From Earliella scabrosa (lineage: Eukaryota > Basidiomycota > Agaricomycetes > Polyporales > Polyporaceae), in the NCBI GenBank assembly GCA_022605405.1, contig JABYQQ010000010.1, positions 744,001-808,000 of the forward strand: DNA of 64,000 bases, given 5' to 3'. How positions within the stretch are numbered: the stretch's first letter is position 1; the number at the start of each line of letters is the position of its first letter. This document shows positions 29,140 through 50,455 of this stretch, piece after piece. Under the pieces are notes generated by a model, which did no database searches, was not told the DNA's origin, and saw only the letters and a list, made by a program, of their open reading frames with translations. Position numbers and translations under genes: made by a program.

Positions 29140-30568
29140 TCATGGAGGAACTCTTCGTTCTGCGGCAACATCGGAGGTCGTCCAGCTATCCCATAAGTAC
29201 TCTGCTATCAATGTGTATACAATCAGCTATGGCTCTACAGGTGGAGTCTGGAGAAAATCACTGTACCATCTGCATGGAGCTCTACTTCGACTGAAAGAGC
29301 AGAGTAGAGGTGGGTCGGGAGTCGATGCACCATTTGCGTCTGCCACCATTCTTTGTGGTAAGCCGGTTGATCATCCCAGAGCGTCAATTTGAGATGGCGT
29401 AACGCGGAGAATGAAGATAGAATCCCGACGATTTCCTCGCCAAGTATAACGTCGAGGTAACTGATACGACTAGCCCCGTAGCGGCGTACGTGGTCGGGGT
29501 TAGTACTGCCAGGGAGAATCTCGATAGCGAGGGATAGCACCGCTGAGCCCGGTTGTAAGCTGCTTAAGACTGCGCGTAAGTTATGAATCCGACAGTCACT
29601 CTGGAATTCGTAGGACTGCAACCCGCTTGACCCGACACGGTTGAGTACGGGCCCGCCCGGTATGGCGGTTACGACCAGCGTTTCTAGTCGGCGAAATTTG
29701 GAGATGCACTCCAGTGTGCCAGCTGCCATGTAGATGTAGCGTGAAAATTTGGCAACTCCGAGGGCGCTAGGTTACAGTACCTGATATGCCTTCCGATGAA
29801 TCAATCTGCAGTGCGATGACGGAATCGCCGAAATTGAAGGGTGTCCAATTGATGAGGGCACATTCTTTATCCTGTTGGAGCGGAGATGTGGCCTGTTGAG
29901 CTCGCGTCACGGTGCGAGCCGTACAGGAAATGACGACATACCAAGTAAAGATGGCGTAGACTCTGGCTGATCCTTGTGTGCCTCTTGCTGCGAGAGAAAT
30001 AAAGGGGTATCTCATCCGGCACGAAGGTACGTGATGACGTCAAGGAAAGCTTGCGCAGCTTTCGAAGCGACGTAATCAAGGATAATGTCGAGGGGAGTGC
30101 CTTCGCTTCGCAGAGGTCTATGTCGAGATCCATGATCCTTGGCGACCACACGCGGAACGTAGTTTCGACGAGGCGGGGCGGACATGTGCGCCAAATTGAG
30201 GAAGACAGCTGCAGGCTCGTAACATTTTGACACAGCTGTGGAAGAAGCGTCCGGGCAAATGGCACATACACCCGGACGTGGTCGGGTTGTACCACGAGTC
30301 TGGTCACTGAAGCAGCATAGTGCGGGGCCTCCTTCAATGTCCGGATGAGGAGGTCAACTTGAGTTCCACTCGTCAGTCTGACTTCATTGTATAGTTTCGA
30401 CCGGCTGCGAGGGAGCCAGGCGGAGCAGACAAGGGAGGTTTGGCACCATTGGCGAACGGCCTCGGTAGATGTCGATCCGGCAGTGGACGAAGATCGCGAG
30501 GAGGGAGGTTCGTAGAGGGAATCAATGATGTGCTCGCATAGTTCGATGGGCAGGAGGCAGTTTTCCAT
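29140..30568 (-). CDS. F-box-like protein, 419 aa (intact copy)
   Basis: Exons 30568-29942, 29892-29781, 29722-29267 and 29204-29140 join in frame. The start MENCLLPIELCEHIIDSLY is an F-box-like motif, followed by CSAWLPRSRSKLYNEV, the usual linker in Agaricomycete F-box proteins. The remainder has irregular leucine-rich stretches (LCQNVTSLQLSSS, RRLETLVV, FSALRHLKLTLWD). F-box proteins bring substrates to SCF ubiquitin ligases; large lineage-specific families occur in mushrooms, mostly of unknown target. This copy is uninterrupted. Its duplicate is split between 32908-33510 and 49007-49821 by the 15.5-kb insert. Confidence 0.7.
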
Positions 30569-30986
30569 GTCGACCGATGGTCAGGGAGGGGTGTGGGGGG
30601 AGACAGAGGTTAGCCTACTGCGGCCTGACTCTTATGGACGAGAGATCGTGGCAGGCGGTGATTCAGACGTCGACAAAGTACGTACTACCCGCTGTATGTA
30701 CTGACCCGGAAGGACAAGAGCCGTCGAAACGACCTGTGCAATCTAGTAATCTGTCATTGCTGCCACGAGTCGCGTGAAGCGGGTCCGCGGCTAAAACTAC
30801 CCTCCTCCTCCCACGCGCACAGCCCCTACCACAAGCTGTAGTAGCCGTCTTCTCTTCGCAAGTCGTTGGAAGGCAGGGAACAAACGCCGGACGCATTTGA
30901 ACTTCAAACTTCGTAGCACAGCAAGCTTCCGTGCCTACTAGTACACGAGATATAGAGTAGCAACCGATAACACGATGATCGAGCGA
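30569..30986. other. Upstream region of the F-box-like gene (copy 1)
   Basis: Shared with 49822-50112 in copy 2 at high similarity; no gene. Confidence 0.5.
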
Positions 30987-31939: not shown

Positions 31940-32024
31940 CGGGCCATTCAAGCACAACTCCGCGCCGAGCTTCTGGACGAGCCCCAGACCAAGCGGCTGG
32001 AGCGCCTCCTTCCACACCTACGTA
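31940..32024 (-). pseudogene. Carboxylesterase 3' fragment
   Basis: Translated on the minus strand it gives VWKEALQPLGLGLVQKLGAE and then nearly the same ending as the intact carboxylesterase at 50456-52636 (the last ~30 residues). The fragment starts abruptly at the duplication junction and has no start, so it is a relic and not a gene. Confidence 0.8.
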
Positions 32025-32029
32025 TGACC

Positions 32030-32149
32030 AAATCGATGACAAGGATCGACCGGGCAACCCTCCTCATGTCCGTCGCAGAGATGTTTAGCACCCGCCCAGA
32101 TCTTGTTGAACGGTTCACGGAAGTTGGCACCTTCGGGGATCTGGCGTGA
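32030..32149 (+). pseudogene. PAH gene fragment (second exon only)
   Basis: Encodes RIDRATLLMSVAEMFSTRPD then LVERFTEVGTFGDLA and a stop, closely matching exon 2 of PAH gene d. The first exon is absent because the duplication junction lies in the intron. Not expected to make a protein. Confidence 0.75.
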
Positions 32150-32907: not shown

Positions 32908-33510
32908 TCATGGAGTTCTTCGTTCCGCAGCAATATCTGAGGCCGTCGAGGTATCCCATAGGCGTTTCGCTATGTATGAATACAATCAGCTCTGGTTAGA
33001 CAGGTTGAATTTGGGAAAAGCACCGTACCATCTTCATGGAGCTCGACTTCGACTGAGAGAGCAGAGTGAAGGTGACTTGGGAGACGATGCACCATTTGCG
33101 CCTGCCACCATCGCCCGCCGTAGGCCGGAGTATTATCCCAGAGCGTAAACTTGAGATGGCGTAACCGGGAGAGACCAGACAGAATCCCGACCATTTGCTC
33201 GCTAAGTAGAAAGTCGCATAAGGCGATGCGGCTTGCCTCGTAGACTCTCCTGGTGGGACTTCCCATGAAGCTCGTTTTAGGAAAAACTTCGATAGCAATG
33301 GATAGCATCGCTGAGCCCGGCTGTAAGCTGGCTAAGACTGACCGCAGATTGCGGCCCATATAATCGAAGAGTAATTTGCCCAGCATGAAGGATACGCTTA
33401 AGTTCTCTAACTGGCGAAATTTGGAGATACACCCCAGAGTACTAGCTGCCAGTGTGTAACATCAACAGTGGGCGATCCCGTGACTCAGAGAGAGCGAAGT
33501 ACCTGATACC
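32908..33510 (-). pseudogene. F-box-like gene, duplicate copy, C-terminal half
   Basis: The minus-strand translation contains LASLQPGSAMLSIAIEV, SGLSRLRHLKFTLWDN and LHSALSVEVELHEDG, equivalent to exon 3 of the intact copy, plus a last exon ending AAERRTP and a stop at 32908. Its N-terminal half lies 15.5 kb away at 49007-49821. The break falls in the equivalent of exon 2, precisely at the target duplication of the large insert. Confidence 0.8.
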
Positions 33511-33516
33511 CCGATC
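33511..33516. repeat. Target-site duplication CCGATC, left
   Basis: CCGATC immediately precedes the left inverted repeat; the same six bases follow the right inverted repeat at 49001-49006. The intact paralogue lacks the insert at the equivalent position near 29790. Confidence 0.75.
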
Positions 33517-33558
33517 TATGATGTTCGTTTTGCACATTTAATTAAAAACGAGGACAAT
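33517..33558 (+). repeat. Left terminal inverted repeat, 42 bp
   Basis: Matches the reverse complement of 48959-49000 at 40 of 42 positions (mismatches at positions 6 and 27). Similarity stops abruptly inward. Confidence 0.8.
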
Positions 33559-33927
33559 TATCGGCTTCGCGGAGAATGTATGCCCAGACTACTGGTGTGA
33601 ACATTGTTAGGCTAGTATGAGTAACAGTCGCGAGACTTATCAGCGACCTATCATCAGACCGTCATTTTTAGCAGGCTTACCGGAGGGCAAACATTTACGC
33701 GTGGATAGTTACCCGGACGGACTTATTGTTGAGCTAAGAGGCTGAACCGTCGTGCGCAAACCATTCCTCTGGCTTGGGCTAGACTACAGTTGTGACGGAA
33801 CATTATGTGTTCAACCACCAACAAAGCAGACATTCAATTAAACGCTGGATTAACGCTGGTTTACAGCGGGCCAAGCTGCCCTACTAATTCCAACCTCGCT
33901 ACCACGTAACAAATACACGGGGGCTCC

Positions 33928-36025
33928 CTAGCCTACCATCGCCGTCTTGAGGCGATCCAAAACACTCTCCCATTGACTAAACAGACCCACACCCCACTTC
34001 CATCGCTCGGCGCCGGTGCGAGGCAGCTGGCCTCCAGCCTCCGACAGCTGCCGGAACGATTGAAACCCACACTCCGCCCAACGGAACAGCCCGCCAGCCG
34101 TGTACTGCGTGAGGGAATAGCGGCGTTCGTGCGGGGCAATCGCAAGGTTGGAGTGGTGAATGATGGCTGAAGGGATCAGGATGGTGGATCCGGGGGGAAA
34201 TTCGATGATCTTCTTGAGCTCCCAAAGGATGAGATGCCCCCCAAGGCGCGGGTTGAACTTGCCAATGGCCGTGATGGCGCACCAGCCGAACGGAATGTTG
34301 AGGTAGTCGACGTGCTTCGCTGTGACCGTCCGCGGGCCGACGTTGGCAGTGGCGCAGGCAAACACGTTGTTCCTGTAGTTGCGTTCGAGGGTGGGGTCCC
34401 TCTGACAGACACCGTCCAAAACCCAGTCGTAAAGCTGGTAGATGTCGGGGGCAAACATTTGAAGAGCGGCTGCAAATCGCGGAAGGTCAGCACAGCCTGC
34501 CAGGAGGGGGAGTAGGTAGCGCACCATTCGCGAAGTTGGCCACCCGCAACATTGCAGGGTGGCGGCGCAGCACATCCACTACGGCATAATTCCGGTGGCT
34601 TCCCTGTGCTAGTCGGCCAACTCGCTGCTAGCAGTCAGCCCACAATTCGGCCGTGGCGCTCACAGGACGGCTCACGCACCTGCTGTCCCCCGCCGAAGGA
34701 CAGCCCATAGGAGATCCAGTGATAGTCGTCGCCCACACGGCGGTTGGTGCCGGGTTTGAAGGTGTAGGCCTCCCGGCATTCGTCGAAGAGCTGGGAAAGG
34801 GTGTCGTTCACGTCCTGCTGCCAGCGAGGATCTTTTGGCTGGCCGCCCAGGGCGGAGACCACGCGGAACCAAGGGTCGAGGAAGGGGGTCGGGGTTCTGA
34901 AATTCCCGAAAGATTTGGGACTGGGCGCAAGGAAAAGGGAGGGGGCCGCCCACCTTCCATCCCACTCCACATACTGAAAGCCGCGCTGTTCGAAATATTG
35001 GCGAAGGCGCTGCACCCGTTCGTCCTCCGTGGCGTCGTCCTTTAGACCAATGAAGGCCGTGCTCGCAACGTGAACGCTGTGAAAGTCGTCGAAGTCGAAG
35101 TCAGTGGTGACGGGCGTTGGGCCGTCGGCGTTCCCAGGCAAGGGGAGCGAAGGCTCGTCGACAGGAGGAGTAGAGAGGACGCGCTCCTCCTGGACATGTC
35201 GGCGGGCGCTCTCTTTGATGGGGCGGTTCATGCCGCCAACATTGTGGGTGTCCCGAACCTTCCGACGCCGATCGTAATGGCGCTGGTTGCGGAGGGCCTT
35301 TCCGGTCGCTGGGGCACGGGGCTGGCTGCTGTGTTCAAGCTGCGGCGAAGGAAGCAGCGCCACCATCGAGGCTGGGAGGTCGAGAGTGTGGACGTCGGGG
35401 CAGCCGGCCACATCTTCGCGCCATCTCCCTGGCACGACGAAGGGATCTTCGTCGTCTTGCACATCTGGAAAGGGGGCGCCGTTGGGAGGGGTGACATGGG
35501 GCGGACACGGGGTTGGACTCTCGAAGGAGAGCTCGGAGGAGAGCTCGGAGGGGCGACATTCCGGCAGGTTGCGTGGGGGTGGTCCTGGGACTTGGCCTGG
35601 CTGCGCTGTTAGTGAGAGGGCTCATGGGCTGCTGAGGGGGCGTACCTGGGTCGTTGAGGCGGTCCTCCGTTGCGCAGGCGGCGGCAATGCGGGCCTCGGT
35701 GCTGAAGTCCGGCGGCGCGTGGAGAGGCACGCCGATGTCGGAGTACCACGGCGAAAACGCCGAGCCTGAGCGGGTCTAACAAGGGAGTAAGGGGGACATT
35801 CAGGTTTGGCAAGTGACTAAACCCACCTTCCGAAAAGCCGCAAAGTCTTCGAAGGGGTTGGGTCCTGAAAAGAAGGAGTGTGTCAGCGCGTCGTTCACGC
35901 CGAAGGCGGCAGCCCACGACTATCCACCATCGCACCACGCGTTCTGGGCCCCAAGGTCGAAGCACACGAGCCCGCTGGCACGACGGTTTCAAGTTTGAGC
36001 GAGGGGAGAACGTACCTGCTGACAT
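33928..36025 (-). CDS. TET/JBP-like 2-oxoglutarate/iron dioxygenase of mushroom transposon type, 574 aa
   Basis: Six exons join in frame: 36025-36016 (only 10 nt), 35864-35827, 35775-35646, 35605-34680, 34603-34525 and 34469-33928. The C-terminal domain contains KHVDYLNIPFGWCAITA, giving the iron-binding HxD pair (His447, Asp449), then GGHLILWELK, EFPPGSTILIPSAIIHHSN with a candidate distal His (499/500), and RYSLTQYTAGGLFRW with a candidate 2-oxoglutarate Arg. This pattern belongs to the abundant Agaricomycete family described as TET/JBP-like, known to expand with KDZ-class transposons; such enzymes oxidise methylated bases in DNA. The N-terminal half is Pro/Ser-rich and unrecognised. The gene lies inside the 15.5-kb insert, downstream of and on the same strand as the integrase-type gene. 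Activity on DNA is inference. Confidence 0.65.
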
Positions 36026-36511
36026 TGCAGCGTGACAGCGGCGGCGGATTCGTGGGCAGGGTTGGGCGGCCGTGAGCGAAGTCGTGAGCGAGGTCGTAGG
36101 GGAGGTCGTGGGCGCGGTCGTGGGCGCGGTCGTGAGCAAGGTCGTGAGCAAGGTCGTGAGCAAGGTCGCAGAGGGTCGGAGGCACTGAGGAAGGAATGGG
36201 GACGTGGCAGAGGCGCCAGCTCTGTTGATCCCATCACGTGAGCGATCGGCGCTTCGAGCCAGAACGCGTGACGTCACGCGAACATGACAAGGTCCGCGGC
36301 CGAGGGAGGACGAGGATGAGGGACGAGGGACGAGAGAAGAGAGACGAGACGTCGGGCGGGCGCGATAACGAGAAGCAGGGGAGCCGTTACAGCAACGCAA
36401 ACAGAAACTTACAGCCTCTGATAGTGTGGCTACGACTGGCTTATGTGAATAACACGGCGCCACTATGGAGAGGGGCTCCGATGTTCTGGGTGCAACGCTG
36501 GTTACAAATAG

Positions 36512-38616
36512 CTACCCGTGCTCTTCCGTCCCATGCTGCATGCGCAGAATCCTGTTCATTAAGTCCAATCCCTGTGCCCACAGTACCGCCCTTGACCACC
36601 AAATCGTGAACGGCAGCTCCACCGCCACCCTCCTACCATGCCTTCCCAAGGAGATGAACTCCTGTGATCCATACCCACCTTCTGGCCATTCCGCCTCAGC
36701 TACTCCCAAAAACGAGGGCACCAAACCAGCAGATCGAATCTCCGCAAGACAATTCGTGAAGATGTCTAAGGTAGCTGCGTCGAAGGGGCAATTCGAGGGT
36801 GGAACTGGAATGGCGTCGTGGCGTATGTGGTGCTCCTGAGATGCTGCGATAGCGTCATCGAGGGGTGTGTGGGCTGTGCCATCAGGTGAGGAGGAGGAAG
36901 ATGGCGATGGGGAGGAAGGCGAAGAGGGTGGTTGAGAAGGGGAGGGTTGCGACCCGCTCTCGCTTTCCTCGTCCGAGTGTCCAGCGCCTGTCTGTCCAGG
37001 GTGCCGTCTGCGCTCCTCTCGGTCGACCCCATAGTACTGTTCGAGAATCTCTGGATGGACTTCCTGGAAATCGTCGTGATTGTGTGGCTGTCCATGCTTG
37101 AGCTGTCCAAGAAAACGGATATCCTGAATAAGAGGCGCAGTTCATAAGAAAGTTTGAAACTAAGTGCGATTATTAATGGTCAGTAACTCACCAAGGGAGA
37201 ACGATCCCCACCCTTGCCTGAGAGAGGATGGTGATTCCAGTGTTCCTGAAAGGTGACACAGTCCTCATTGATCATAGCAAGGAAAAGATAGTGCAAGAGC
37301 CAGAGATGGTGCGGGTTGTTGGGATCAAGCTGATGACGACGTTCCAATCGAGTAAAGAAGGCCCGCCATCGGAACGCAAACTGGGTTCCAATCTCGACCC
37401 ACATGCGCTCAATGCGAGTGTTTCGCGTGGAACTGTAATGGCCTGTCAATGGTTGCCAAACGAAATGAGATGTCACCGCGCTCACCTTCCCCACATGAAG
37501 GATGCTCGGTTTGGACCTCGAAACTTGATCATCCAGATGGCGACGTCCACGTTCTCCCCGCCGCGATCGCCGCGCACTCGAGAGGGAACACCCCAAATAG
37601 CAACAGCTTCGAGAAAGCAGGTCTCCACTGTACGAGAGAAGTTGTTCGTGTTGCCGCGCAGCATCACCATCTGGAATCAGCAGTGGCTCAGTCGTGCTTG
37701 AACCTTTGCATAGTCCTGGCAGGCTACTTACCACGCGATCAAATCCATCCGCCCCGCCGTGGAACACGATTCCCCAGCGAATGAGCTTGTGGTAGCCATC
37801 GATGTGCCACAGGTAGTTAGGATAGGGGACGATGTATTCCCGGCGATCGATCGTCTTATGGGTTCTAAGGACTTGGCGAAGGCGATCGATTCTATTGAGG
37901 GACTGGATCACACGAGCCTTTTGAACATGTAGACCGTTGGACTCGAGGAATCCGATGGCGTAGCGGAACCCGGAGGGAGGCTTTGTCTCTCGGAAAGCGC
38001 GAAGAAGGGTGTCAAGATCCTGGTCAGATATCGTGGAGAAGGATCGATAGATATTATGACGCTTCATCTTGTTACGAAGGGTGTTTCGATGAACGCCTAG
38101 TGTCTTTGCCAGCGTTGTAAGAGGAATGCGACGATGAGTAGAAGTGGCCTCTTGAAGCCAGTTGGGATCGATGACTATCGCTGGGCGGCCACGGCGTCCG
38201 TTTCTAACCACATGCACCGGGAGAGACTGGACTATGTTTTTCTCCAAGCTAAAGGATTACATCAGTGGGGCTTGTTGAGGGTGGGTTCAATGCAGTACTG
38301 ACATGGAGCTCTCCCTTACAGCAGCCCCATCTAACTCGCATATGAGGCTTGCAAGAGCATGGGTACATTCCGCTATCCATGAAGGGTTGGAGACCTCCTC
38401 TTCTAATGCCTGCAGGATAGGCACTATACGCTTCTTCAATCGTTCGGAATGAAGCTGAAGTCGGATGGGATCGCCATCCTCGAATCGGAGGAGTGAGTGG
38501 GAATCGTGATAGGCTTTAGTGAGTATCTCATGAGCCTGTAGAACTCCGGATGACCAGCCATCAGAGGATATGGGATCGGGAAGGGAGGGAAATTGGGCAG
38601 GGCGATCAGTGGACAT
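36512..38616 (-). CDS. Integrase-type DDE recombinase, 622 aa
   Basis: Exons 38616-38303, 38248-37732, 37670-37486, 37432-37192 and 37123-36512 join in frame. A helix-turn-helix-like segment (LTTLAKTLGVHRNTLRNKM) precedes an RNase-H-fold core. The core has YLWHIDGYHKL (Asp255), RVRGDRGGEN (Asp312) and NTRIERMWVE (Glu347). The last Asp and Glu are 35 residues apart, a DD35E arrangement like retroviral integrases. HHLWLLHYLFL and an acidic Ser/Pro-rich linker lead to a conserved-looking C-terminus (GRHGRRVAVELPFTIWW). Agaricomycetes carry many such integrase-core proteins of unclear element type. All catalytic acids are present and the gene appears intact. It is the best candidate transposase of the surrounding 15.5-kb element, which makes a 6-bp target duplication. 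Confidence 0.75.
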
Positions 38617-39013
38617 TGCTCAGTAACACGGAGGTGTAAGTCTCAGATCTGAGCTCGAGACAGGCTTGAAAGCAAGAGGCGCCTTCGAACCGCTGAGCAC
38701 CACGCTAACCGGACCGTGGACCGTCTACCGACGGCTCTGGGGTTGGGTTCTCACGTACATAAGGCAATTTGGCCCGTCCAGCCAGCTCATCGCCCCTCTC
38801 CTCTCCCCATTCTGCCACTGTCTCCCTCCTTCCCCTGCTTTGACCGCTGCAAGTCTAACTCATTCGCTCATTCACTTTTGACCTTGCCCCTGCTCGTCCT
38901 CGTCAGGTCTCGCGAATTGCATACCACTCTCCTTCGGCTCTCCTCAAAGCTCCCTCGCGTCTTCTCCCTCACACCTCTCCCTCGCCTGCACCTTCTCCCT
39001 CCTGTCTCAACCG
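38617..39013. promoter_or_regulatory. Divergent promoter region of integrase and BTB-like genes
   Basis: No gene. The two genes are transcribed away from each other from this 397-bp region, which is pyrimidine-rich on the plus strand near the BTB-like start. Confidence 0.45.
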
Positions 39014-40002
39014 ATGGCTGCCGCCGTGATTGGTCCGACCCAACCCATCGTCAACGGACCAGAGCACCCCGATTACTACCACCCCGATGGCAGTTTTGTC
39101 ATCTTCGTAAGTCTTGGGTATTGCACTGGCTCTGCTGTTAGCTGACTTGCTTCCACAGCTCATGTCGAACGGCATGTTCTACAAACTGTACCGGCGGCAG
39201 CTTCTCCATCAATCCAGGCGCTTCGCCATCACCCTCTCCTTTCCTGCTTCTGACACGAGCGAGGGTTCCTCCAAGCTGATCCCTTTCGTTCTGGAGGGCG
39301 TCAACGCTGGGGACTGGGATAATACCTGTGCTTATTTGTTTGGGCAAAGGTATGTTCTGCCGCTTACTGGAGCTCCTCCCTTCCTGGTTTCTAATCAACA
39401 GCTCCAGGTCCCAGGTCGAGGCTACCCTTCGGAGCCTCCTCCGCATGGCCGTCTTCTTCGAGATGGATGACATGGGTGACTACGCGTTCAACACTCTGGG
39501 GAGCCTCCCGGGCCTGAGCCCGGTTGTTCAGCTTGAAGTGGGCTTGCTTCACGACATAGAAGAATGGATTCATGCGGGCTTCCGTCGTCTTGTGATCCAG
39601 GTGCCCATCCAGCGGCTTCAGCTCGCCGACTTCGATGTGGTAGGGCTGCGCGTTTTCTTCGTCCTCGCCCAGACCCAGGCGGATGTAGAGTTGTACCGCC
39701 GCCAGGTGTGCTACGGTGTGCCGAAGATGGTCTACTCCGCCCGCTGCCCCTTCAATGCTGGCTGCAGGATCTCCTGGAAACAGGAATGGTGGGGCGGCTT
39801 TGCGAAGCACCTGCTGAACCCGGACCCCCTGGTTCCTCGACAAACCCCGCAGGGGTTGTTGACGAAGCTCTTCGACGTCGACATCTCCTACCTCTGTACA
39901 GAGTGCAAGAAGCTGACGATCCAAGCGGCGCTTGATCATCCGGCCTGCAACGGGGAGGACCAAATCATCAACCTCGGTGTCAAGCGACTGGGGCAACTTT
40001 AG
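39014..40002 (+). CDS. BTB/POZ-like protein, 294 aa
   Basis: Exons 39014-39106, 39159-39349 and 39402-40002 join in frame. The N-terminus runs EHPDYYHPDGSFVIFLMSNG then MFYKLYRRQLLHQSRRFA, matching the BTB-like domain common in Agaricomycetes. After it comes a helical region (LRSLLRMAVFFEMDDMGDYA) and two cysteine pairs later on (CPFNAGC, CTECKK). BTB proteins often act as adaptors for cullin ubiquitin ligases, but this family is expanded and unassigned. The gene is intact and lies inside the 15.5-kb insert. Confidence 0.65.
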
Positions 40003-40125
40003 GAGGTGCTCACCAAGCCTCTTCCTGCACCTGGCATATCTCCCTCCTCGGCACTTTGTTCATCGGCATCAGCATCAGCATCGGCATCGGCAACGGCATC
40101 CGTATCACGACACTCTCAACGACCA

Positions 40126-40440
40126 CTCTCAACGACCGCTCTCCGCGACTGCTCTCCGCGACCGCTCTCCGCGACCGCTCTCCACGACCGCTCTCCACGA
40201 CCGCTGTCCTCACCACCTCTCCACGACCGCTCTCCGCGACCGCTCTCCTCTCCACCTCTCCGCGACCGCTCTCCGCGACCGCTCTCCACTCCACCTCTCC
40301 GCGACCGCTCTCCACTCCACCTCTCCGCGACCGCTCTCCGCGACCGCTCTCCACTCCACCTCTCCGCGACCGCTCTCCGCGACCGCTCTCCGCGACCGCT
40401 CTCCGCGACCGCTCTCCGCGACTGCTCTCCGAGCTGGTTC
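40126..40440. repeat. Minisatellite, 13-bp unit CTCTCCGCGACCG and variants
   Basis: More than twenty near-tandem units, with interspersed CTCTCCACTCCAC variants. The region is open in several frames on both strands only because the unit has no stops; no coding role is claimed. Confidence 0.85.
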
Positions 40441-40923
40441 TCCACCACCGCTTTCCACCACCGCGCAGCAAGCATCCTGCAAGACTTGGTTCCGCGACGC
40501 GAACGACCATTTACCAGTCCTGCAGCACGTGTGCTTGTGGGTGTAGCGGCCTTGGCCCCTCAATGGGGATTGAGGGGGTGGCGACGGCTCTCTGTCCTGC
40601 AATCTAATGTTTTCTTGATGCTCTCTTACTCTACCTACCTGCATGTCTCTGTTCTCCTGATCTTGGTGTATCCATAGCTTGTCCATTCTATCTCATACCC
40701 ATACCCTGTCTATCCGGTGCAATGCTCTCCGCCTCTATTTCACGTTCCTAGTCGTTTGTCATGTCCATGAGTATCTCATTCACACCTGTATTACAGCTCT
40801 CATCTATTCATCCACCCTCCCTTGGCCGTCTAGTTTCCAGGGAGGTCATATCCTGTTGAATAGCATCCACTACCTCAGGTTCCAACCTTAGAGCGACCTC
40901 AGTGAGGATGAGCGAACCAGCGA

Positions 40924-41095
40924 GATGGACGTACGAGGACGAGATGGACGTACGAGGACGAGATGGACGACTCGGGGGTATCAGGCGTGTCGGAGGTGCT
41001 GGGCGAGGACGAGATGGACGTACGAGGACGAGATGGACGACTCGGGGGCATCAGGCGTGTCGGAGGTGCTGGGCGGACGAGCGAACCAGCGAGAT
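40924..41095. repeat. Tandem repeat with GAGATGGACGTACGAGGAC units
   Basis: Short units and a larger block (GAGATGGACGACTCGGGGG through GTGCTGGGCG) occur twice. It lies between the BTB-like gene and the next minus-strand gene. Confidence 0.8.
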
Positions 41096-41151
41096 GACCT
41101 CGTGCAGGAGGAGTTGAAGGTGCATGAATACAAAGCAATTCATAGTACAGA

Positions 41152-42141
41152 CTACGGGTGAGGGCATCCTCGGGGATGTACACAGGGTCTAATGGTGGGA
41201 TGAGAGGGACAAGTAGGAACAGTGCCGCGAATCCATGAAGTGCCTAAGCCAGGTAGCTCACAATGATAGTCATGGAGAATCATGGTAAGGCATCCCCTAT
41301 CTCCAAATGAACGCTTGACACAAGGTGCCAGCCATGATCGGACGCAGGGCCGGGGAGATCCAGCAGCGTCGAGATCCCAGTTGTCAGGATGGGTACGGAA
41401 GTGGAGGTTGCGGTCAGCGTACTGAGCCAGCATGTTCAGGAAGCGCTCGCCACGCATCTGGTCAAGGGCGAAAAGGCTGCGTTGATGGAGGGTGAGGGAG
41501 GGATAGGCGCAGCATAAGCCGTCCGCCGCCAAGTAGTTGAAGAAGAAGGTAAGGTGTTGGAAGGCAATGGGGACCGAGGAGCAGGGAGGAAAGAGTGGGG
41601 ATCCAGAGGAGGACACCGTGACAACGACGTCACCTTTTTCAAGGACTACAAGTCGTCGCACTCCAGCCAATGTTGTCCCCGGCTCCACCTCGCAGTAGTT
41701 CGGGTTGTAATTGATGTTGAGCATCTCGTCGCCTTGTTTTTCAAAACCCTCGCGTTGGATGAGGTGTTCTTTGAACGCGTCGAAGTGGTCTTCATCAACA
41801 TAGAACGGCCATGCGAAGAGGGAAGGCGTGTCGGTGAGGAAGGCGAAGGCGGCCCCGCCAGCAAGAATAGCGCCGCATGTGCGCATAACTTCAAAAAAGG
41901 AGGTAGTGTCGTTGACGATACTATACCAACTGCCGGTTAGCAAGGAACTGAATGTCAAAAGGGGAGGGTGTACATACGTCCTGAAGAACACGGAATGACG
42001 ACGGCGGAGCTCATCGCGTACAATGGCGGACACGTCCGCATGAATACCGCGACATTTGAGGAGGAGCGTAGGGGTGTCTACGTAGTAACTGAGGAGCACG
42101 CGGATAGCTTCCAGGACAGCCTGAGGGGGGTGGTAAGCCAT
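41152..42141 (-). CDS. Unrecognised protein, possibly nucleotidyltransferase-like, about 313 aa
   Basis: Open from ATG 42141 (MAYHPPQAVLEAIRVLLSYY) to a stop at 41152, with a probable 48-nt in-frame intron near 41929-41976 that joins SVFFRT to WYSIVNDTTSFF. The segment CGAILAGGAAFAFLTDTP, followed by FYVDEDHFDAFKEHL and then EGFE, recalls Agaricomycete proteins with a G-G/S-x-A...D-D pattern like minimal nucleotidyltransferases. The acidic pair is not convincingly complete, so the call is tentative. Both spliced and unspliced forms stay open. It is part of the 15.5-kb insert. Confidence 0.5.
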   Translation of the reverse strand: MAYHPPQAVLEAIRVLLSYYVDTPTLLLKCRGIHADVSAIVRDELRRRHSVFFRTYVHPPLLTFSSLLTGSWYSIVNDTTSFFEVMRTCGAILAGGAAFAFLTDTPSLFAWPFYVDEDHFDAFKEHLIQREGFEKQGDEMLNINYNPNYCEVEPGTTLAGVRRLVVLEKGDVVVTVSSSGSPLFPPCSSVPIAFQHLTFFFNYLAADGLCCAYPSLTLHQRSLFALDQMRGERFLNMLAQYADRNLHFRTHPDNWDLDAAGSPRPCVRSWLAPCVKRSFGDRGCLTMILHDYHCELPGLGTSWIRGTVPTCPSHPTIRPCVHPRGCPHP

Positions 42142-42566
42142 CGGGGCGAGAGATGACAGAGGGGCGAGTGAGGGGATGGGGAATGGTGGAGTGCCAGGCT
42201 GCCAGCAAAATGTAATCAGATCTCGGTCGCCAAATCGCGTGGCTGAGATCAGAGATCTCATCAGGCGCCCGGGCGGTGGGGCCGCGCCAAAGTGATGGCA
42301 CATCTGCAGACGCAAGCGGAGGGCCGCCGGAGGCAACCAGAGACAACCACGGCGTTGATGGGCAAGGCGTTTGATATGCTGTCATGTGTTGGCCGCACAG
42401 CAGTGGGAGGTGAGCAAGAAGTAGCATGTAGATGGCGGCAGGTGAGACCGGCGCCTGGGCAGGAGGGGAGAGAGCGGCACCCGGGCGTAGCGGGAGAGCA
42501 CGGCGGCGGCGGGAGGGACTCGGGAGCAGCGGGAAAGCGCAGCGCGTGGCCAGCCGCATGTCAATG
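42142..42566. other. GC-rich spacer
   Basis: No gene supported; it follows the abrupt end of Wee1-like similarity. Confidence 0.4.
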
Positions 42567-44602
42567 GCCAACCGGAAGCGGCAGAGGGGACGAAGCCTGG
42601 AGTAACCAGCTCCTGGTCGTCGCAGGACGAGGCTACAGTGCTCACCGAGGTTGAGGCACGCGGCATGGCAGCCATCATGAAGTTCTTGCCCTCGTTGAGT
42701 GGTAGATCGAGCTCCCCATCGCTGTCGGAGAGGACAACGCCGGAGTCGGGGGGACGGACCTTCTTCGGCAAGGGATCGAGGCTTTCGCGCTTCTGTTTCT
42801 TCTTCGGACTGGGTGTGCCACCTTTCTGCAGACTGATGGCGAATGAAGAATCGGCAGGCCCGCTGCTGAAGAAGATGTCGGCCTCATCCTCAGATGAATC
42901 GGACTCCATCCGCTTCCGTGCGTTGACAGGAGCAGGAGATGAGGGCGCAGCAGCAGGGGACCGACTCGCCCAGGCGGACGATGCACCAGGATCAGCACAA
43001 CCACCCGCATAACTGTGGCGGTTGATGAACGAGGGACGTGCTGAAGGTGGCTCAGAGCGGAGGAACAAGGGCGAGACGGGAGTGTTGGTAACGGATGCTG
43101 TCCTACTTCCCTTGCTGCTCTTCTTCGCCGAGCTCGAGTTGTGTATCGAAGGGCCAAAGAACAGGGTTGCTGAACTTGAGCTCTCGAGGCGGTTCAATGT
43201 GCGGCCAGTATGCGACTGCGTCCGTGTCCGCGTCGTTCCAGAGGCGTTGGGGCGCGGCGAGCCAGACTCGGACGACGTCACAGAAGAGTTGGATGTTGTG
43301 CGTGTGCGCATGGTACGAGTAGAAGGGAAGGCGACTGTACTTGCGCTATTGCCTTCATTTATGCGTGGAGTGGCCGTGACCTAAGTTCCGCCGCAATCAA
43401 TATCGTGTGGCTAGGACCCCACAACAAAGACGGTGTGGCTCACCTGCTTATGCGACACAACGGGCGTGCTCTGCACCGACTTGAGTGACTCTGCAGACAC
43501 GGGGTGAGAGCGTGCTCGACCCTTGATGATGTGCCCGCCGGGGGAGATGGCTTCCGCCACCTCTTCGTCGTTGACCAAGCCCTTCCGTGTCAAAACTTCG
43601 AGGCTGGGCGGCTTGCCTTTTGCAGAGGCCTTTGTCCTGGACCTGGCCTTTATGGAAGAGAAGGGAGCCGCCGAGGTGCCGGAGCCTCCCGCAAAGAGCA
43701 GTGGCTGCTTCTCGATTGTCCCATTCGCGTCTGGGTCAGAGTCATATCCGCTCTCGTCACCAGATTGATCGAGATCGCGAATGCTGAGCATGGTCATCGT
43801 TTCCGCCTGCCTTCTGAGGTGCAGCTCGGTCTCGGCCTTGGTATGGGGAGTACGGGAGTTGAAGTGGGGGCAGCGAGAGGGGCGAGGCGGTCAAAGAGAA
43901 GGAGTCGCCTTGGCTATGTGCGAGGGCAGAGGTGACGTTAAGCGGCGTCATTGTGCACGTTCTAGAGGGTGTTGTACATATGGGCGTAGGTTTGCGCTTG
44001 GTGCCAGCGCTGGCAGCGGAAAACAGCGTCGCGGTCACGTTGAGGTGCTTGACGGACAAAGTAGAACGATCGGGTGAGAACTGGAGGGCGTCTCGGGCAG
44101 GGTCCTTGATGGGCGTCCTGAGCGGGGTTCGGAGAGCAGGGGATGATGGTGGGATGAAATGGGATGAGGAGAAAGGGGATGGGCGGAGGAATAGATCGTC
44201 ATCGTCATGGATGGTTATGGAGGAGTCTGGGGGAGGTTGGGGCGAGTATAGGCTATATGCGCGGAGAGGAGACTGGAAGCCATCGTCTTGGTCTACTGGA
44301 CCGGGAATGGGGAGCGCCTGTCGCCTGAGAGGGGATGGAGAGAGCATGGGCGTGTCGTAGGCGAGGGATGAAGCGGAGGAATTGGGAGGAGTGCGACGGA
44401 AGAGAGGAGTGGACGCACGGCAGGGCGGGACCCTGGAATCAGGTTTTGATTGTCCTGAAGGAGACGTAGTCGGAGTTGGGAGAGAGGAGCATGGCGGGAG
44501 GAGGACGAAGAAAGGTGGGATATATCGATACAGGGATGGATGAGGATGCGAGCTGCTCGTGCCTGCTCGAGTCCTGAGCCCCGCGTGGAGAATCTGAGAC
44601 AC
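42567..44602 (-). pseudogene. WEE1: N-terminal fragment of a Wee1-like protein kinase gene, without the kinase domain
   Basis: Minus-strand pieces in order include SPALRTPLRTPIKDPA, TLSVKHLN, AGTKRKPTPI, TKAETELHLRRQAETM, LSIRDLDQSGDESGYDSD, DEEVAEAISPGGHI, ARSH and PVSAESLKSVQSTP, LNRLESSSSATLFFGP, RHSYAG, EADIFFSSGPADSSF, PPDSGVVLSD and AMPRASTSVS. From memory these match the non-catalytic N-terminal region of Agaricomycete Wee1 kinases, which delay mitosis by phosphorylating Cdk1. Two single-base losses are apparent near 43830-43860 (frame changes at FDRLAPLAAP and before HFNSRTP). Similarity stops at about 42567 after SGWP, with no kinase domain downstream. A real intron is kept (donor at about 43454, acceptor about 43384), so the copy was made at DNA level. 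It lies inside the 15.5-kb insert. Confidence 0.55.
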
Positions 44603-45522
44603 GCTGCCAGTTCGTCGTGTCAGAGTGGGATCGTGCAGTATATTTCAGTACAAATCGTCATACCTAGAATGTTCGTGGCGCGCCGTCGGCCCACAACGTC
44701 GCACACCAGACAATCAGCAGCCTGTCTTCATCGCCCGTACTGTGGACCACCAGTCGGCCTGCATTCGACGCTCGCATGCACGTACCCCTGCTATCCTTCC
44801 TCTCGTCTTTGCATCAATTGATCTGGACGACCCGGCACTCCGATTGCTGACCCACGTCGACCTCAGCCTGACCGATCCGCCGCTCGCGCTGCGGTCGCTC
44901 CGGGCGGGGCCGCACTCGCGCGAGGTGGCACTTCTAATCCCGATATCTGGCCCGTTGGGGCGGCTCGAGCTGAGACGCGTGGTGGGCGAGGTGTGCATGG
45001 GGGGTCACAGGCAGGTGTGGAGGGGGGTGTGTACTGGGGCGCGATCTGAACGTTGATGCTCGGTCTGCTCCCGAGCTGCTCAACGACAACAGGAGGGAGA
45101 TCAGCACCGCGCAGCTTCAATCCTGGGATGCTGGTCGTGGAATGGGCCCGGGTTTGAAGCTAGTGGAAGGCGCGTCCCAGTCAAGCTGTCGAAACAGCTT
45201 GAAACAGCTTGAGGGGTAGGCGGAATATCGCTCCGCCGGCTGAGGAGGACAGAAGGGGCTTGTGGCGAGATTGTCCTGCTGCAATGTCGGATGAAGCCGC
45301 ACGGCGCGCGACCCAAGACTTACTGGCTTAGACTCGCGGCCCGGGCCGCGGCCGATCATACCCGGGCCTTAGGCGCCAATACACGCGGCGCGCGCGTTCC
45401 TGCCTGCCGACGTCACCAGCCACCTCTCTCTCTTTCCCTCATCTCTCCCCTTCCCTCATCTCTCCCTTTCCCTCCTCTCCTGCTCTACTCACCGCTGGCA
45501 TCCCCACCACCCGGCCTCAGCA
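44603..45522. other. Spacer, no supported gene
   Basis: Contains AGCTTGAAACAGCTTGA repeats at about 45190-45211 and a pyrimidine-rich leader before the next gene (45420-45490). Short open frames only. Confidence 0.4.
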
Positions 45523-46163
45523 ATGGCGACTCAGGACAACCCCGAGGAGGACGGCTCGGACGACGTGGTGTTCATCGGATTCAACACGGACGTCCTATTC
45601 ACCGGATTTCGGCTGCACGGCCTGTCTGAGGACGGCATGAAGACGCTGGAGGAGGAGGGGCTGGTCTTTATGGGCTTTGACCAAGGCAAGCACGAACCCC
45701 TTGGGCAACGTAAGGTGGCCAGCCTTCCGCGCCGGCGTGCCCATCCCTCCCTCAACATCGCCGACGCCGCCGTCGAACCGCTCCCCACTCCCGCTTTGAC
45801 TGCTAGCTCTGAGACGGAGGAGCGCCTCAGTGCCGGTACGTGTGCCCCTATCATCTACGACGTGCGCTGTAACAGTCCCTGGGTCAGCTCCAGCGGTCTC
45901 TCCAGGCCCACCTCCCAGCTCGACCGTCTCGTCAGACAGGAGGGACGCCCAGTCTGAGCAAGGCGTCATTGACGTTGACGAGTGGGCTGCTGCGCAGGAG
46001 GTGACTCAACAGGTGAGCCTGCTGCATACTGACACTTGCTTAGGCGGTTCTGATCAGCCAACAGATGGTGGGACGACGACGCAGCGTGGATGGGTCCCCA
46101 CCAACCAAACGGCGACGTGTAGAGAACTCGCAGGGCGATCAGGCTGGCTGTCGTGCCTCTTGA
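45523..46163 (+). CDS. Unrecognised small protein with nuclear localisation-like signal
   Basis: Three exons join in frame, 45523 to about 45837, about 45877-46011 and about 46045-46163, using short introns. The N-terminus is acidic (MATQDNPEEDGSDDVVFIGF) and the C-terminus has GRRRSVDGSPPTKRRRVE, a bipartite nuclear localisation-like signal. VIDVDEW lies in between. No domain is recognised. Its position just upstream of another plus-strand cargo gene inside the insert suggests a linked role, but nothing in the sequence shows what it is. Confidence 0.45.
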
Positions 46164-46433
46164 GCACTGTCTGGTGGGTACAACATCCATCTTGTGCCGC
46201 ACGTCTACTGAGCATTCGTTCAGCAGGGTACTTAGATGTCTCGTGCGGTTATTTTTGGACGTAGTCATGTGATTGTCGGATGCGACTGCGCACTCCGCAG
46301 TTGCAGCCCTCTGCCTTAAAGACTGCCCTTTCCTCGCCTCCCACCACCATCCTTCTCGACGCTTTTGTCTCCCTATCCCCAGCTTGCTTCTAATCTACCG
46401 TCCTTACTCGTGTTCCCGTCCGTTCTTGTCTCA

Positions 46434-47913
46434 ATGCCACTCCCGTCCCCCGCGCCCTGTTCGAAGTTCAAGAAGCAGAAAGGCGACAAGAAGAAGAAGA
46501 AACCCTGCCGCAACTGCAGCCTCCCCAAGGACGCGCACAAGAAGAAGCCTGAGGTCTCATCGGCGCCGACTGTGCCTAGTATCTTGGCGAAGTATAGCAT
46601 CAAGGGCCTCAAACCGTTAGCCTCAGAGGCTGAAGCTCGACAGGAGATGACTGCGGGTTTCCGCCCTGCTCCGCCTCCTGCTGCGTCGCAAGCCGGTCCG
46701 TCCAAGTCGTCTGTAAGTGTCGCTTCATTCCTATAAGCACTACGTCCTGACCTTGACTTTTGCTCTATCAGAAGGCCCGTTCCCGACGGAGTGCCAGCGC
46801 GAATTCCAGCAAGGCACAGAAAGAGATGGGTCCCAAACCGTCGAAACTATACCCGCTTCGCTACATGTTGGTCAATCCATGCGGTCTCTGGCTTACTGCG
46901 GTAAGTAGACTCTGCCTACCGTCGAGCGTTGGCTGGTGCCTCTGCCAGGCCCGATGGCTTTCAAGCCCTGACGCGTCTTCCTGTGCAGACTACCCCGCCG
47001 AAGATGGCGCTCACATCTGATCTTGTCCCCACGACCGCTGACGAGGAGACGTTCCGGTCGGAGAGTGTTGGCCTCCTGGTCAATGAAGGTCCGGATAAGC
47101 GCCCGCTCGCCTTCTCTGCGGACTGGTCCATGGCCGCCTTCGATCAATACCTGCGTCAACTTTTCCCTCCTCTGTTCGAATATCTGGATCTGGTATATGG
47201 TGTCCGCAATGGCACTGAAGACAAATTTCATTGGCGTTTGCTTCGGCGCTCGTACAACAAAGCAATCTTGTACGGCAAATCCACCGTCGATGGCCGCGAC
47301 CTCTTACAGTGTCGGCTTGGTGCAACCACGAAGAACAAGGACAATTTTGGGCTTATGATAGGTACGTCCTCTCCTTCAAGCACACGATCCTGTCAATCTC
47401 CTCTGTCTCCCCATACCTGTCAGTTCCCCCTAACCTAATACGTCTTCTCTCCTCCAGTCACTCGACACTTCATTCCAGCGTCCGTCTACGAGGACTGGAA
47501 GGGTGCTATTGCCGAGGCAAAGGACCAGCGCATCAAACGTGGGCACTCCCCCGTTGATGAGTTGGACGTCGAGCCAGAAATGGACTCAGAGTCATCGGAC
47601 TCGGACTCGGACAGCGCCTCATCAGTCGATGGCCGTGACTTCCAGCCCTCGGAGCCCGACACCGACAGTAGCAAGGACGATGGCTGCAATCATCGTCCTG
47701 TGACCAGGAAGGGCAACAAACGTCCCGCGAGTCGATCCCCCTCTCGGTCTCCTTCGCCGTTCTCTCCGCCTCCGATTTCCCAGAAGCGTCTAGCCAAGAG
47801 ACCTCGATTGCGTAGGCCGAACCCTATGTCTGTCGAGTGCTCAATACTGACTTTCGCGTTTCCACCCAGTCTCCCCTGCAGTCGATGACTGGGACGTTGC
47901 AGCTGCCCGTCTT

Positions 47914-47976
<63 letters not shown>

Positions 47977-48237
47977 CACGACATGTCTGAGGCAGGACAA
48001 TCCGAAGCCGAGGTCGCCGCAACAGTTTCAGATGACTCCTACCCCACTGGCCACCGCAACGCATCGTGGGATGTAACATCGTCGCAGGTTGTGAACGCCC
48101 AGACGTCATCGCGATCTATCAGCCCAGTCCCTGCCCCTGCGGTCGCGACTCCCGTTGCAAGCCAGTCCACTCGCCCGACATATGGACCAGGTCTTCGCTC
48201 GCCTACTGTCGGCTTCACCAACCCTTGGAGCCCGTGA
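46434..48237 (+). CDS. Unrecognised lineage-specific protein, 500 aa
   Basis: Five exons join in frame: 46434-46712, 46772-46900, 46989-47361, 47458-47811 and 47870-48237. A Lys-rich start with CRNCSLPKDAHKKKP could be a small metal-binding motif. The middle has AAFDQYLRQLFPPLFEYLDL, KFHWRLLRRSYNKA and TVDGRDLLQCR, a pattern I associate with uncharacterised Agaricomycete proteins found in mobile-element-rich regions. The C-terminal part is acidic and Ser-rich, with a basic RSPSRSPSPFS segment and an Asp-Asn dipeptide repeat encoded by a GACAAC microsatellite (47914-47973). No catalytic motif is seen. Confidence 0.6.
47914..47973. repeat. GACAAC microsatellite, about 10 units
   Basis: Perfect hexamer repeat within the last exon of the 500-aa protein gene, encoding alternating Asp-Asn. 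Confidence 0.9.
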
Positions 48238-48958
48238 AACGCCGTCGGTCGAGGGATGGTCTACACTTCACGACATTCCTTTATCCTTCCTTCCTCATCC
48301 CCACTTTTTCCCCCATCGTGGGGCTTGAAGTCGTTCGTCGGTTGCTATCAGTAGTACTAATCATGCTTTCTTTCATCCCGCCGTTGGTTCTGTCTCTCCT
48401 GCTCTTCACGTCTCCACTGCTTCCCGCTTTGTAGCTGCTATACCCTCGCAGGCTCATTCACATTTGGTTAACGGACATCTCATCTCGCCTCCACACGCTC
48501 CCTCTTCTGTTGCCAGCCATCTCCGGACGGACTACTCGGTCGTTACTATCGTGATATCCCCTACAATAATCATCTGTCTAATCGTTCAACTGCGTGCAAC
48601 ATCGCCCATGTGTGAACATAATCAAATGGTGCATGACAGCTGAAGGGGTATTGTCTGGTCATTCCGTTTCTGCGCTGAGGAATCAATGTTTGTTTGCGAT
48701 GGATCGGCGTACCATACTATTGTCGTGGTGCTCAGACCATCTAGCAAATTTGTCCTATATCCCAGGGTAAGTGTTTACGGTAGTAGAGCAACGACGACAG
48801 TTTGCACATGTTACGAAGCTGGATGTCAGAATATACGATGTGTACAAATGGACTACTAGACCGTCCCCGCTAACAAAAGCAGTACCTATACAAATAGAAT
48901 ATGCGGTCAGACAAAGGAGTGTTTGTTCGCTGGGAGGAGTGTTTACATAAGATCCACG
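48238..48958. other. Noncoding right end of the 15.5-kb insert
   Basis: No gene; AT-richer than the coding parts. Shares no long similarity with the left interior. Confidence 0.4.
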
Positions 48959-49000
48959 ATTGTCCTCGTTTTTTATTAAATGTGCAAAACGAACGTCATA
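48959..49000 (-). repeat. Right terminal inverted repeat, 42 bp
   Basis: Inverse of 33517-33558 with two mismatches; directly followed by the CCGATC target duplication at 49001-49006. Confidence 0.8.
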
Positions 49001-49006
49001 CCGATC

Positions 49007-49821
49007 GACACGTCAATCTGCAGGTCGACGACAGAATCCCCGAAATCGAAGGTTCCCCAGTTCATCTGAGCGCAGTTGTGATGCTGTAGGAGCGGAGATG
49101 GCCAGTGGCCTGTTGAATTCGCGCGCGAACAGAGGAAATAACGACATACCAAGTGAAGATGGCGTAGACTCTGACTTATAGTGTGCCTCTTGTGGTAATA
49201 CCACTCATGCGGGTACGCAGGCAGCACTAAGACACACGAAGATGCCATGGAAAGCTTCCGCAACTTTGGAACCGACGTGATCAAGGATAGTGTCGAGGAG
49301 AAGAATGCCTTCGCTCCGCAGACGTCTACTACATCTATGTTGAGATCCATGATCCTTGGCGACCACATGCGGAACGTAGTTTCGACGAGACGGGGCGGAC
49401 ATTTGTGCCAAATCGAGCAAGATAGCTGCAGGCTCGTAACATTTTGACACAGCTGTGGAAGAGGCGTCCGGGCAAACGGCACATACACGGGCGGCCGGGC
49501 CCAGTCGGTATGTACCACTGAGAGTCTGGTCACTAAAGCAGCATAGTGAGGGGCCTCTTTGAATGTCCGGATGAGGAGGTCAACTTGAGTTTCCCTCGTC
49601 AGTTTGACTTCATGGTATAGTTTTGACCGGCTGCGAGGGAGCCACGCGGAACAGACCAGGGAGGTTTGGCACCACTGCTGGCGAATGGCCTCCGAGATAG
49701 ATTTCGATTGAATGACGGACGCAGATTGCAATGAGTAATCTTTGTAGAGGGAAGAGGAATGTTCGTAGAAGGAATCAATGATGTGCTCGCATACTTCGAT
49801 GGGCAGGAGAGAGTTGTCCAT
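49007..49821 (-). pseudogene. F-box-like gene, duplicate copy, N-terminal half
   Basis: Begins MDNSLLPIEVCEHIIDSFY and continues with CSAWLPRSRSKLYHEVKL, close to the intact copy at 29140-30568. Exon 1 is 49821-49150. Relative to the intact copy, the next exon has about five extra bases (GCCAG near 49102) that shift the frame, and the gene then runs into the inverted repeat of the 15.5-kb insert at 49000. The C-terminal half is at 32908-33510. A truncated protein could be made but no complete one. Confidence 0.8.
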
Positions 49822-50455
49822 GTCGACCGATGGTCAGGGATGGGTGTGGGGGGAGACAAAGGCTGGCCTACTGCGGCCTGGCTCTTACATATGCACCAGA
49901 GATCGTGGCAAGCTGTGATTCATACGTCGACAAGGTTCGTACTGCCCACGCGTACAGCCCCCTACCACAAGCTGTAGCCGTGTTCTCTTCGCCAGTCGTT
50001 GGAAGGCAGGGAACAAACGCCGGATGCATTTGAACTTCAAACTTTATAGCACAGCAAGCCGTGCCTACTAGTACACGAGAATAGAGTAGCAGCCGATAAC
50101 ACGATGATCGAGCGATAGCATGCAGTAAGGTACGGATACAGATACATAACGTGCGGCAATAATGCATGGGATGGGATAGGATGGGATTCGATGAGATGGG
50201 ATGTTGACCGATGAGCGTGAGGATCCAAACAACAACAACAGATGCAGCACAGAAAAACCCAAAGGGAATAAGTAAATGACACCAATCAGAACAGCGGAGG
50301 TATATGCGGCAGCGCGCTGATAGAAGCAAATCGTTCACCGTCCCGAAACCTGGGATAACGCGCACAGCACTGCTGACTGGGAAGTGGAATTTTGAAGAGA
50401 AGAGGGGTCCAGACGGGGATGGAGAAGGAGAACCTGGCCGGGTGGCACTGGGCGA
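49822..50455. other. Upstream region of the split F-box-like gene and 3' flank of carboxylesterase
   Basis: No gene. Contains the empty site for the 590-bp insert at about 50106-50119 and a GATGGGAT-rich stretch at about 50168-50200. Confidence 0.5.

What the first reader, a model, noticed from the sequence alone, without database searches (positions are those of the whole stretch)
33517..49000. A 15.5-kb candidate cargo transposon splits a duplicated F-box-like gene, with its empty site in the same window
Seen: 42-bp terminal inverted repeats (40/42 match), a CCGATC duplication on both sides, and two halves of one F-box-like gene on either side. The tandem paralogue at 29140-30568 is continuous across the same point. 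Known: terminal repeats plus a short target duplication mark DNA-transposon insertion. Inference: the whole segment, with a dioxygenase, a DD35E integrase-type protein and other genes, moved as one unit. No fungal element class I know has exactly this combination (Starships use a tyrosine recombinase; KDZ elements use another transposase; Polintons carry DNA polymerase).
Basis: partly seen in the sequence, partly recalled or inferred. Interest (0 to 1): 0.93.

Follow-up and report, generated by a model that had tools for sequence, protein, structure and literature searches.

The report
Mushroom transposon carrying captured host genes
A 15.5-kb stretch of a bracket-fungus genome is a real jumping element that carries its own integrase, an enzyme resembling DNA-demethylating TET proteins, and copied pieces of host genes; each part is known from other transposons, but the combination in this group of fungi looks new.

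Summary
Window 33517-49000 is one mobile unit: 42-nt inverted ends, CCGATC on both sides, and joined flanks that align straight through to the tandem paralogue. A second copy (C1, 15,546 bp; 11 substitutions and four length changes) lies at an unrelated place with its own 6-bp duplication. A third, diverged element (C6, 17,336 bp) and eight 0.8-kb elements have the same ends.

TA..TA ends, 6-bp duplications (6 of 7 insertions), a DDE transposase of Pfam rva_4 without an HHCC motif, and a TET/JBP-like dioxygenase fit the IS3EU/GingerRoot superfamily. TET-carrying IS3EU elements were published in 2025 from rusts and a truffle; that survey reports only Kyakuja carriers in Polyporales.

New here: the host is probably the polypore Earliella scabrosa. 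Between two element-associated genes lies a slot with different host DNA in different elements: the 5' part of a Wee1/Myt1-family kinase gene in the two young copies, 4 kb of the fatty-acid synthase beta gene in C6. These pieces keep introns and have broken frames, so part of the cargo is transduplicated host sequence, not intact genes. Verdict: new variant of a known kind.

The parts
33511..33516 (.). left target-site duplication CCGATC
33517..33558 (+). left terminal inverted repeat, begins TATGA
33928..35621 (-). TET/JBP-like dioxygenase; modelled exons 35621-34680, 34603-34525, 34469-33928 (520 aa); the N-terminal end is not fixed and an upstream exon is likely
   Evidence: splice model; same model open in copy B; homologues; fold of the relative P0002
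36512..38616 (-). DDE transposase, Pfam rva_4; modelled exons 38616-38303, 38248-37732, 37670-37486, 37432-37192, 37123-36512 (622 aa); D255, D312, E347
39280..40002 (+). ORF2, element-associated protein of unknown family; earlier exons from about 39014 are likely
   Evidence: conserved in C6; 6 of 7 matches in the genome lie at rva_4 transposase loci
40061..40529 (.). 13-bp tandem array beside ORF2 (best-scored part 40120-40431); its length differs between copies A and B
40934..41075 (.). 70-bp tandem repeat; related repeats lie beside the C35 host gene
41144..42157 (-). probable captured copy of a member of a host multigene family, 79% identical to C35:96126-97137; holds most of ORF 41152-42381
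42547..44546 (-). captured 5' part of a host Wee1/Myt1-family kinase gene, 96% identical to C1:3364740-3366755, intron kept, frame broken
44709..45043 (.). two short pieces resembling C9:341782-342324 (81% and 73%)
45373..48234 (+). ORF3 region, several ORFs conserved in C6 (31-69% by protein); splicing not worked out
   Evidence: matches beside other rva_4 loci
48959..49000 (-). right terminal inverted repeat, ends TCATA
49001..49006 (.). right target-site duplication CCGATC
49001..49833 (-). 5' part of the interrupted host gene
32970..33516 (-). 3' part of the interrupted host gene
29140..30580 (-). uninterrupted tandem paralogue (empty-site equivalent)

Best explanation
It is a recently mobile DNA transposon of the IS3EU/GingerRoot type in a polypore. 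Shown: the whole 15.5 kb sits at two unrelated places with separate 6-bp duplications, and its transposase and dioxygenase models are open in both copies. Inferred: the DDE transposase recognises the TATGA..TCATA ends, moves the element and joins both ends to target DNA at cuts six bases apart. Inferred: the TET/JBP-like dioxygenase oxidises methylated cytosine on the element and so counters silencing, as Kojima (PMC12730594) proposes for TET-carrying fungal transposons. Shown: between ORF2 and ORF3, next to tandem repeats, is a slot that holds different host DNA in different elements. Inferred: breaks or stalled forks in the repeats were repaired by copying host genes (gap filling or template switching), and the captured DNA then spread with the element.
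Against: No transposition was observed. The C6 element has a 7-bp duplication. The helix-turn-helix hits are below Pfam's cut-offs. The window's own dioxygenase hits no Pfam family, and neither it nor the profile of 24 relatives finds a TET enzyme in PDB by sequence; the fold evidence is from a relative, 40% identical over 75%. The alpha-kinase gene of published TET-carrying IS3EU elements is absent. The CpG pattern of mutations is suggestive only and the directional tests disagree.
Confidence: 0.82

Rival explanations
1. The element is moved in trans by another transposase with the same ends; the internal rva_4 gene is a passenger.
For: Eight 0.8-kb elements with the same ends share only the ends with the long element and must be moved in trans; other rva_4 genes exist in the genome.
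Against: The internal transposase is open in both young copies. The next-best rva_4 copies with these ends are the broken C6 gene; the 52-53% relatives at C23, C24 and C4 all contain stops in the matched stretch.
Confidence: 0.08
2. The slot contents came in by separate later insertions of other mobile elements, not by capture during repair.
For: The slot of copy A is a mosaic of pieces resembling C35, C2, C1 and C9, and the captured frames are broken.
Against: Both young copies, at unrelated loci, hold the same slot sequence at 100% rounded, so it was inside before the last move. The host loci hold the longer genes, so the direction is host to element. No terminal structure was seen at the kinase or FAS edges in the two alignments viewed, though none was searched for systematically.
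Confidence: 0.06
3. The dioxygenase is not a TET-type DNA enzyme but another 2-oxoglutarate oxygenase, so the silencing-escape idea does not apply.
For: No Pfam hit for the window protein; one relative carries a prolyl 4-hydroxylase name (P0098); a shared fold shows no function.
Against: TET, NgTET and CcTET structures stand well above FTO, AlkB and prolyl hydroxylases; two relatives are named JBP1/TET oxygenase and one matches Tet_JBP at E 9.5e-7, below the cut-off.
Confidence: 0.2
4. Assembly artefact or segmental duplication rather than transposition.
For: Two copies are nearly identical.
Against: Similarity between the window and 35 kb around copy B stops exactly at the ends, the flanks show none, and each copy has its own duplication; an uninterrupted paralogue exists.
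Confidence: 0.01

Closest known systems
TET-carrying IS3EU transposons of Pucciniales and Tuber indicum (Kojima 2025, PMC12730594; abstract, parts 1-4 of 7 and find passages seen, supplements not)
   Same: TA.. ends longer than 30 bp, 6-bp duplications, IS3EU-type transposase, a TET/JBP gene inside.
   Different: Host is a polypore, where that survey reports only TET-carrying Kyakuja. The dioxygenase lies at one end, not between transposase and an alpha-kinase gene, and no alpha-kinase match falls in the three long elements. ORF2, ORF3 and captured host genes are present.
IS3EU/GingerRoot superfamily (PMC10045372; find passages only)
   Same: TA..TA ends, usually 6-bp duplications, DDE transposase without HHCC motif.
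   Different: Size of 15-17 kb with additional genes; sequence relation to Repbase entries not tested.
Transduplication of histone H3 by hAT elements in Dothideomycetes (PMC6710886; find passages only)
   Same: A fungal inverted-repeat DNA transposon that carries host gene sequence.
   Different: There a transcript or retrocopy without introns was captured by hAT; here genomic, intron-containing pieces of two other genes in an rva_4 element.
Pack-MULEs and Pack-TIRs of plants and animals (PMC8277862, find passages; PMC8903248, search listing only)
   Same: Copied host gene fragments between inverted ends; repair by template switching or gap filling proposed.
   Different: Those are mostly short and non-autonomous; here the fragments sit in a long element with its own transposase.
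Gene-capturing Helitrons of Pleurotus (PMC4289320; search listing and a passage of PMC6431247 only)
   Same: Captured host gene fragments in a mushroom transposon.
   Different: Rolling-circle element without terminal inverted repeats; a different enzyme.

Membership tests
IS3EU/GingerRoot | TA..TA termini (PMC10045372) | tested here: met
   TATGA..TCATA in all 3 long elements and the 3 short ones examined this way
IS3EU/GingerRoot | 6-bp target-site duplications | tested here: met
   6 of 7 insertions examined; C6 has 7 bp
IS3EU/GingerRoot | DDE transposase without an upstream HHCC zinc motif | tested here: met
   rva_4 match, no C..C and no HHCC pattern in the model; catalytic D, D, E invariant in 16 relatives
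IS3EU/GingerRoot | transposase clusters with Repbase IS3EU and GingerRoot sequences | not testable with these tools
   Repbase not held; relatives by the same Pfam model include mollusc, fish and coral proteins
TET-carrying IS3EU as published | TET/JBP gene inside the element | tested here: met
   by fold of a relative and shared motif, not by activity
TET-carrying IS3EU as published | TET/JBP gene lies between transposase and an oppositely oriented alpha-kinase gene | tested here: not met
   5 alpha-kinase matches in the genome, none inside the three long elements
PE-type TET/JBP dioxygenase | HxE instead of HxD | tested here: not met
   HVD at residues 393-395 of the model
AG-type TET/JBP dioxygenase (CcTET-like) | Gly or Ser 3, and Asp 9, residues after the Asp of HxD | tested here: inconclusive
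   counting from HVD in the printed sequence gives N and C, but no residue alignment to CcTET was made
KDZ (Kyakuja-Dileera-Zisupton) and Plavaka | their own transposase families | tested here: inconclusive
   the only transposase-like Pfam match is rva_4; not every ORF was scanned and the Pfam library may lack these families
Starship | tyrosine recombinase at one end (recalled) | tested here: inconclusive
   no such Pfam hit in the ORFs scanned; inverted ends and a DDE enzyme argue for another mechanism
Polinton/Maverick | protein-primed DNA polymerase | tested here: inconclusive
   no polymerase hit in the ORFs scanned; not every ORF was scanned
Pack-type transduplication | truncated copies of identifiable host genes between the element's ends | tested here: met
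   kinase and FAS beta pieces

The most novel reading that the evidence does not exclude
The slot is a hostage device: by carrying 5' parts of genes the cell cannot do without (a Wee1/Myt1-family kinase, fatty-acid synthase beta) beside a demethylating enzyme, the element makes homology-based silencing of itself dangerous for the host, so such captures are selected rather than accidental.
Probability: 0.06. Interest if true: 0.85.

Novelty: new variant of a known kind. Interest (0 to 1): 0.52.

Why it matters
It would extend TET-carrying IS3EU-type elements to polypores and offers a clean natural experiment: two near-identical 15.5-kb copies at unrelated sites, an empty-site paralogue, short elements with the same ends, and two independent host-gene captures with known parent genes. 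Whether a transposon-borne TET-like enzyme protects its element from silencing, and how a long element with its own transposase takes up host genes, become testable in one genome.

Tried and rejected
Chance inverted repeat: rejected. Segmental duplication: rejected, similarity between C10 and C1 stops exactly at the ends and the flanks show none. All cargo being intact genes: rejected for the kinase and FAS pieces. Polinton and Starship: no support in the ORFs scanned, but not every ORF was scanned.

Led nowhere: Pfam and NCBIfam on ORF2, ORF3 pieces and the 41152-42381 protein (one insignificant Pfam hit); homologues of a joined ORF3 piece (3 short unnamed proteins); the dioxygenase against PDB by sequence, alone and as a profile (no TET enzyme); inverted ends of the C24 relative within the 9 kb seen (none recognised); a paper search for the Pfam accession (one unrelated paper). 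Statements about what is not in print rest on the listings of searches in the open-access library; of searches only 20 of 217, 8 of 25,451 and 10 of 127 papers were listed.
Full report
OBSERVATION. The inverted ends 33517-33558 and 48959-49000 match at 40 of 42 positions and are the only inverted pair of 30 nt or more found in 28-52 kb. CCGATC flanks both. When the insert is left out and one CCGATC kept, the flanks align to the tandem paralogue through the junction, 830 of 1,067 columns identical. The interrupted gene is on the minus strand.

MOBILITY. The first 184 bases of the element occur identically at C1:5315537-5315720 and the last 401 bases identically at C1:5330682-5331082. The two copies (15,484 and 15,546 bp) differ by 11 substitutions and four length changes of 39, 108, 1 and 6 bp; the 39-, 108- and 6-bp ones lie in or at repeat arrays. 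Copy B is flanked by GTACTT on both sides. The window and 35 kb around copy B are similar only inside the element. A third long element, C6:2239585-2256920 (17,336 bp), is about 65-74% identical where DNA aligns (85-91% at the ends) and is flanked by a 7-bp CTAACAG; its transposase stretch contains stops. The end pattern TATGAYGTTCRTTYTGCACATTTA, up to 2 mismatches, has 24 matches in the 51.7-Mb genome and 0 for the control: 11 pairs (A, B, C6 and eight of 820-838 bp) and 2 single ends, both on C9. Three of the short elements are 98-99% identical, with duplications CTACAT, CTACAC and GAGTTC; they share only the ends with the long element. A fourth, 3 kb from copy B, has CCGCTC. Target duplications were examined for 7 insertions: 6 have 6 bp, one has 7.

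HOST. Three dioxygenase homologues labelled Earliella scabrosa (P0001, P0006, P0011) lie on contigs of 617,978, 775,439 and 1,308,075 bp, exactly the lengths of C26, C21 and C16 of this genome. The host is therefore very probably Earliella scabrosa, Polyporales.

TRANSPOSASE. One ORF was open over 358 codons, but comparison with C6 showed short introns. The five-exon model gives 622 aa, rva_4 at E 2.3e-59, and D255, D312 and E347 with 34 residues between the last two. It is open in A and B, with one amino-acid difference near the start. The matching residues are invariant in an alignment of 16 relatives picked from basidiomycetes, Rhizophagus, a mollusc, two fish and a coral (the window protein was not in it). 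Best hit: Trametes versicolor, 52% over 98%; 419 proteins passed E 0.001, 120 were listed. Helix-turn-helix matches upstream are weak and below Pfam's cut-offs. In the genome, 35 exon-level matches of the ORF were scored.

COMPANION GENES. ORF2 (39280-40002) has 7 matches in the genome: A, B, C6, C4:461 kb, C24:464 kb, C23:273 kb and C2:813 kb; the first six lie at rva_4 transposase loci. ORF3 (46905-47438) has 9 matches: A, B, C6, C4:457 kb, C24:460 kb and C23:269 kb lie at rva_4 loci, C4:2988 kb lies near an rva_4 fragment, and two lie at C2:846 kb. Transposase, ORF2 and ORF3 therefore look like the core of this lineage. At C24 the order is ORF3 and transposase (minus), ORF2 (plus), then another ORF, 464886-465362 (minus), that matches Tet_JBP at E 4.4e-6, below the cut-off. 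TET-like genes may have joined this lineage more than once.

CAPTURED HOST DNA. Comparing A with C6, the proteins of the region between ORF2 and ORF3 are not shared. In A and B it holds 42547-44546, 96% identical to C1:3364740-3366755. That host gene runs on into a kinase domain matching the membrane-associated cdc2-inhibitory kinase (E 1e-28) and Wee1-like kinases (4.5e-18) among solved structures. The copied stretch begins 54 bp before the presumed ATG, keeps a putative intron, and ends before the kinase domain; gaps of 1 and 10 bp break the frame. The slot also holds 41144-42157, 79% identical to a member of a host gene family at C35 (60 exon-level matches in the genome, many weak), and short pieces resembling C2 and C9. 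In C6 the slot holds 2249023-2252938, 91.5% identical to C16:555548-559538, with SAT and Fas1-AflB-like helical domains of fatty-acid synthase beta. Weaker similarity reaches back to near the FAS start, a putative intron is kept, and several gaps are not multiples of three. Two different elements thus hold different host genes in the same slot. Both captures begin near a presumed start codon; two cases are too few to call that a rule. Since B holds the same slot sequence (100% rounded), the capture came before the last move. Intron-containing capture separates this from the histone H3 case in hAT elements (PMC6710886, passages).

METHYLATION HINT. Of 11 substitutions between A and B, 11 are transitions and 6 lie at CpG; with 15.6% of positions in CpG, 6 or more of 11 has P 0.003. 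There is no matched non-transposon control, and directional tests disagree: CpG losses in the element against the host copy are 12 to 6 for the kinase piece and 32 to 34 for FAS, and the non-transposon paralogue pair gives 9 to 4. CpG observed/expected is 0.93 in A, 1.02 in C6 and 1.06 in the rest of the window. This is a hint, not proof, that the element has been methylated.

KNOWN OR NEW. PMC12730594 reports TET-carrying IS3EU in seven rust species and Tuber indicum, and in Polyporales only TET-carrying Kyakuja (supplementary tables not read). PMC10045372 gives the superfamily features tested above (passages). IS3EU itself is reported from a polypore, Ganoderma leucocontextum (PMC8955403, passage). 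Nothing in the listings of searches or 92 describes host-gene capture by an IS3EU element; those listings were partial, and subscription papers and preprints were not searchable. The finding is a new variant of a known kind.

Noticed in passing
C24:459853-465362 (L068, L025, L069): A related rva_4 locus with ORF3, transposase and ORF2 carries a different Tet_JBP-like ORF (464886-465362, minus; E 4.4e-6, below Pfam's cut-off); no inverted ends were recognised in the 9 kb seen.
   Followed up: partly
C26:468456-469614 and C3:2601848-2603006: Two further loci hold the closest relatives of the dioxygenase outside these elements (77% in the last exon, with a stop upstream) and no rva_4 match was reported there; they may belong to another kind of transposon.
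   Followed up: no
C1:5315137-5331482 (copy B): Copy B also seems to lie inside a coding sequence; by recalled pattern the flanks printed resemble an EF-hand protein gene. Not tested.
   Followed up: no
C6:2239585-2256920: This element has a 7-bp target duplication (CTAACAG) where the other six insertions examined have 6 bp.
   Followed up: no
C1:5311687-5312524 and C1:5315537: A 0.8-kb element with the same ends lies 3 kb from the long copy B.
   Followed up: no
window 28172-33500 and 49001-50563: The interrupted gene lies in a larger tandem duplication; blocks at 31.6-32.0 kb and 50.1-50.6 kb are 90-100% identical, mostly more alike than the gene copies themselves.
   Followed up: no
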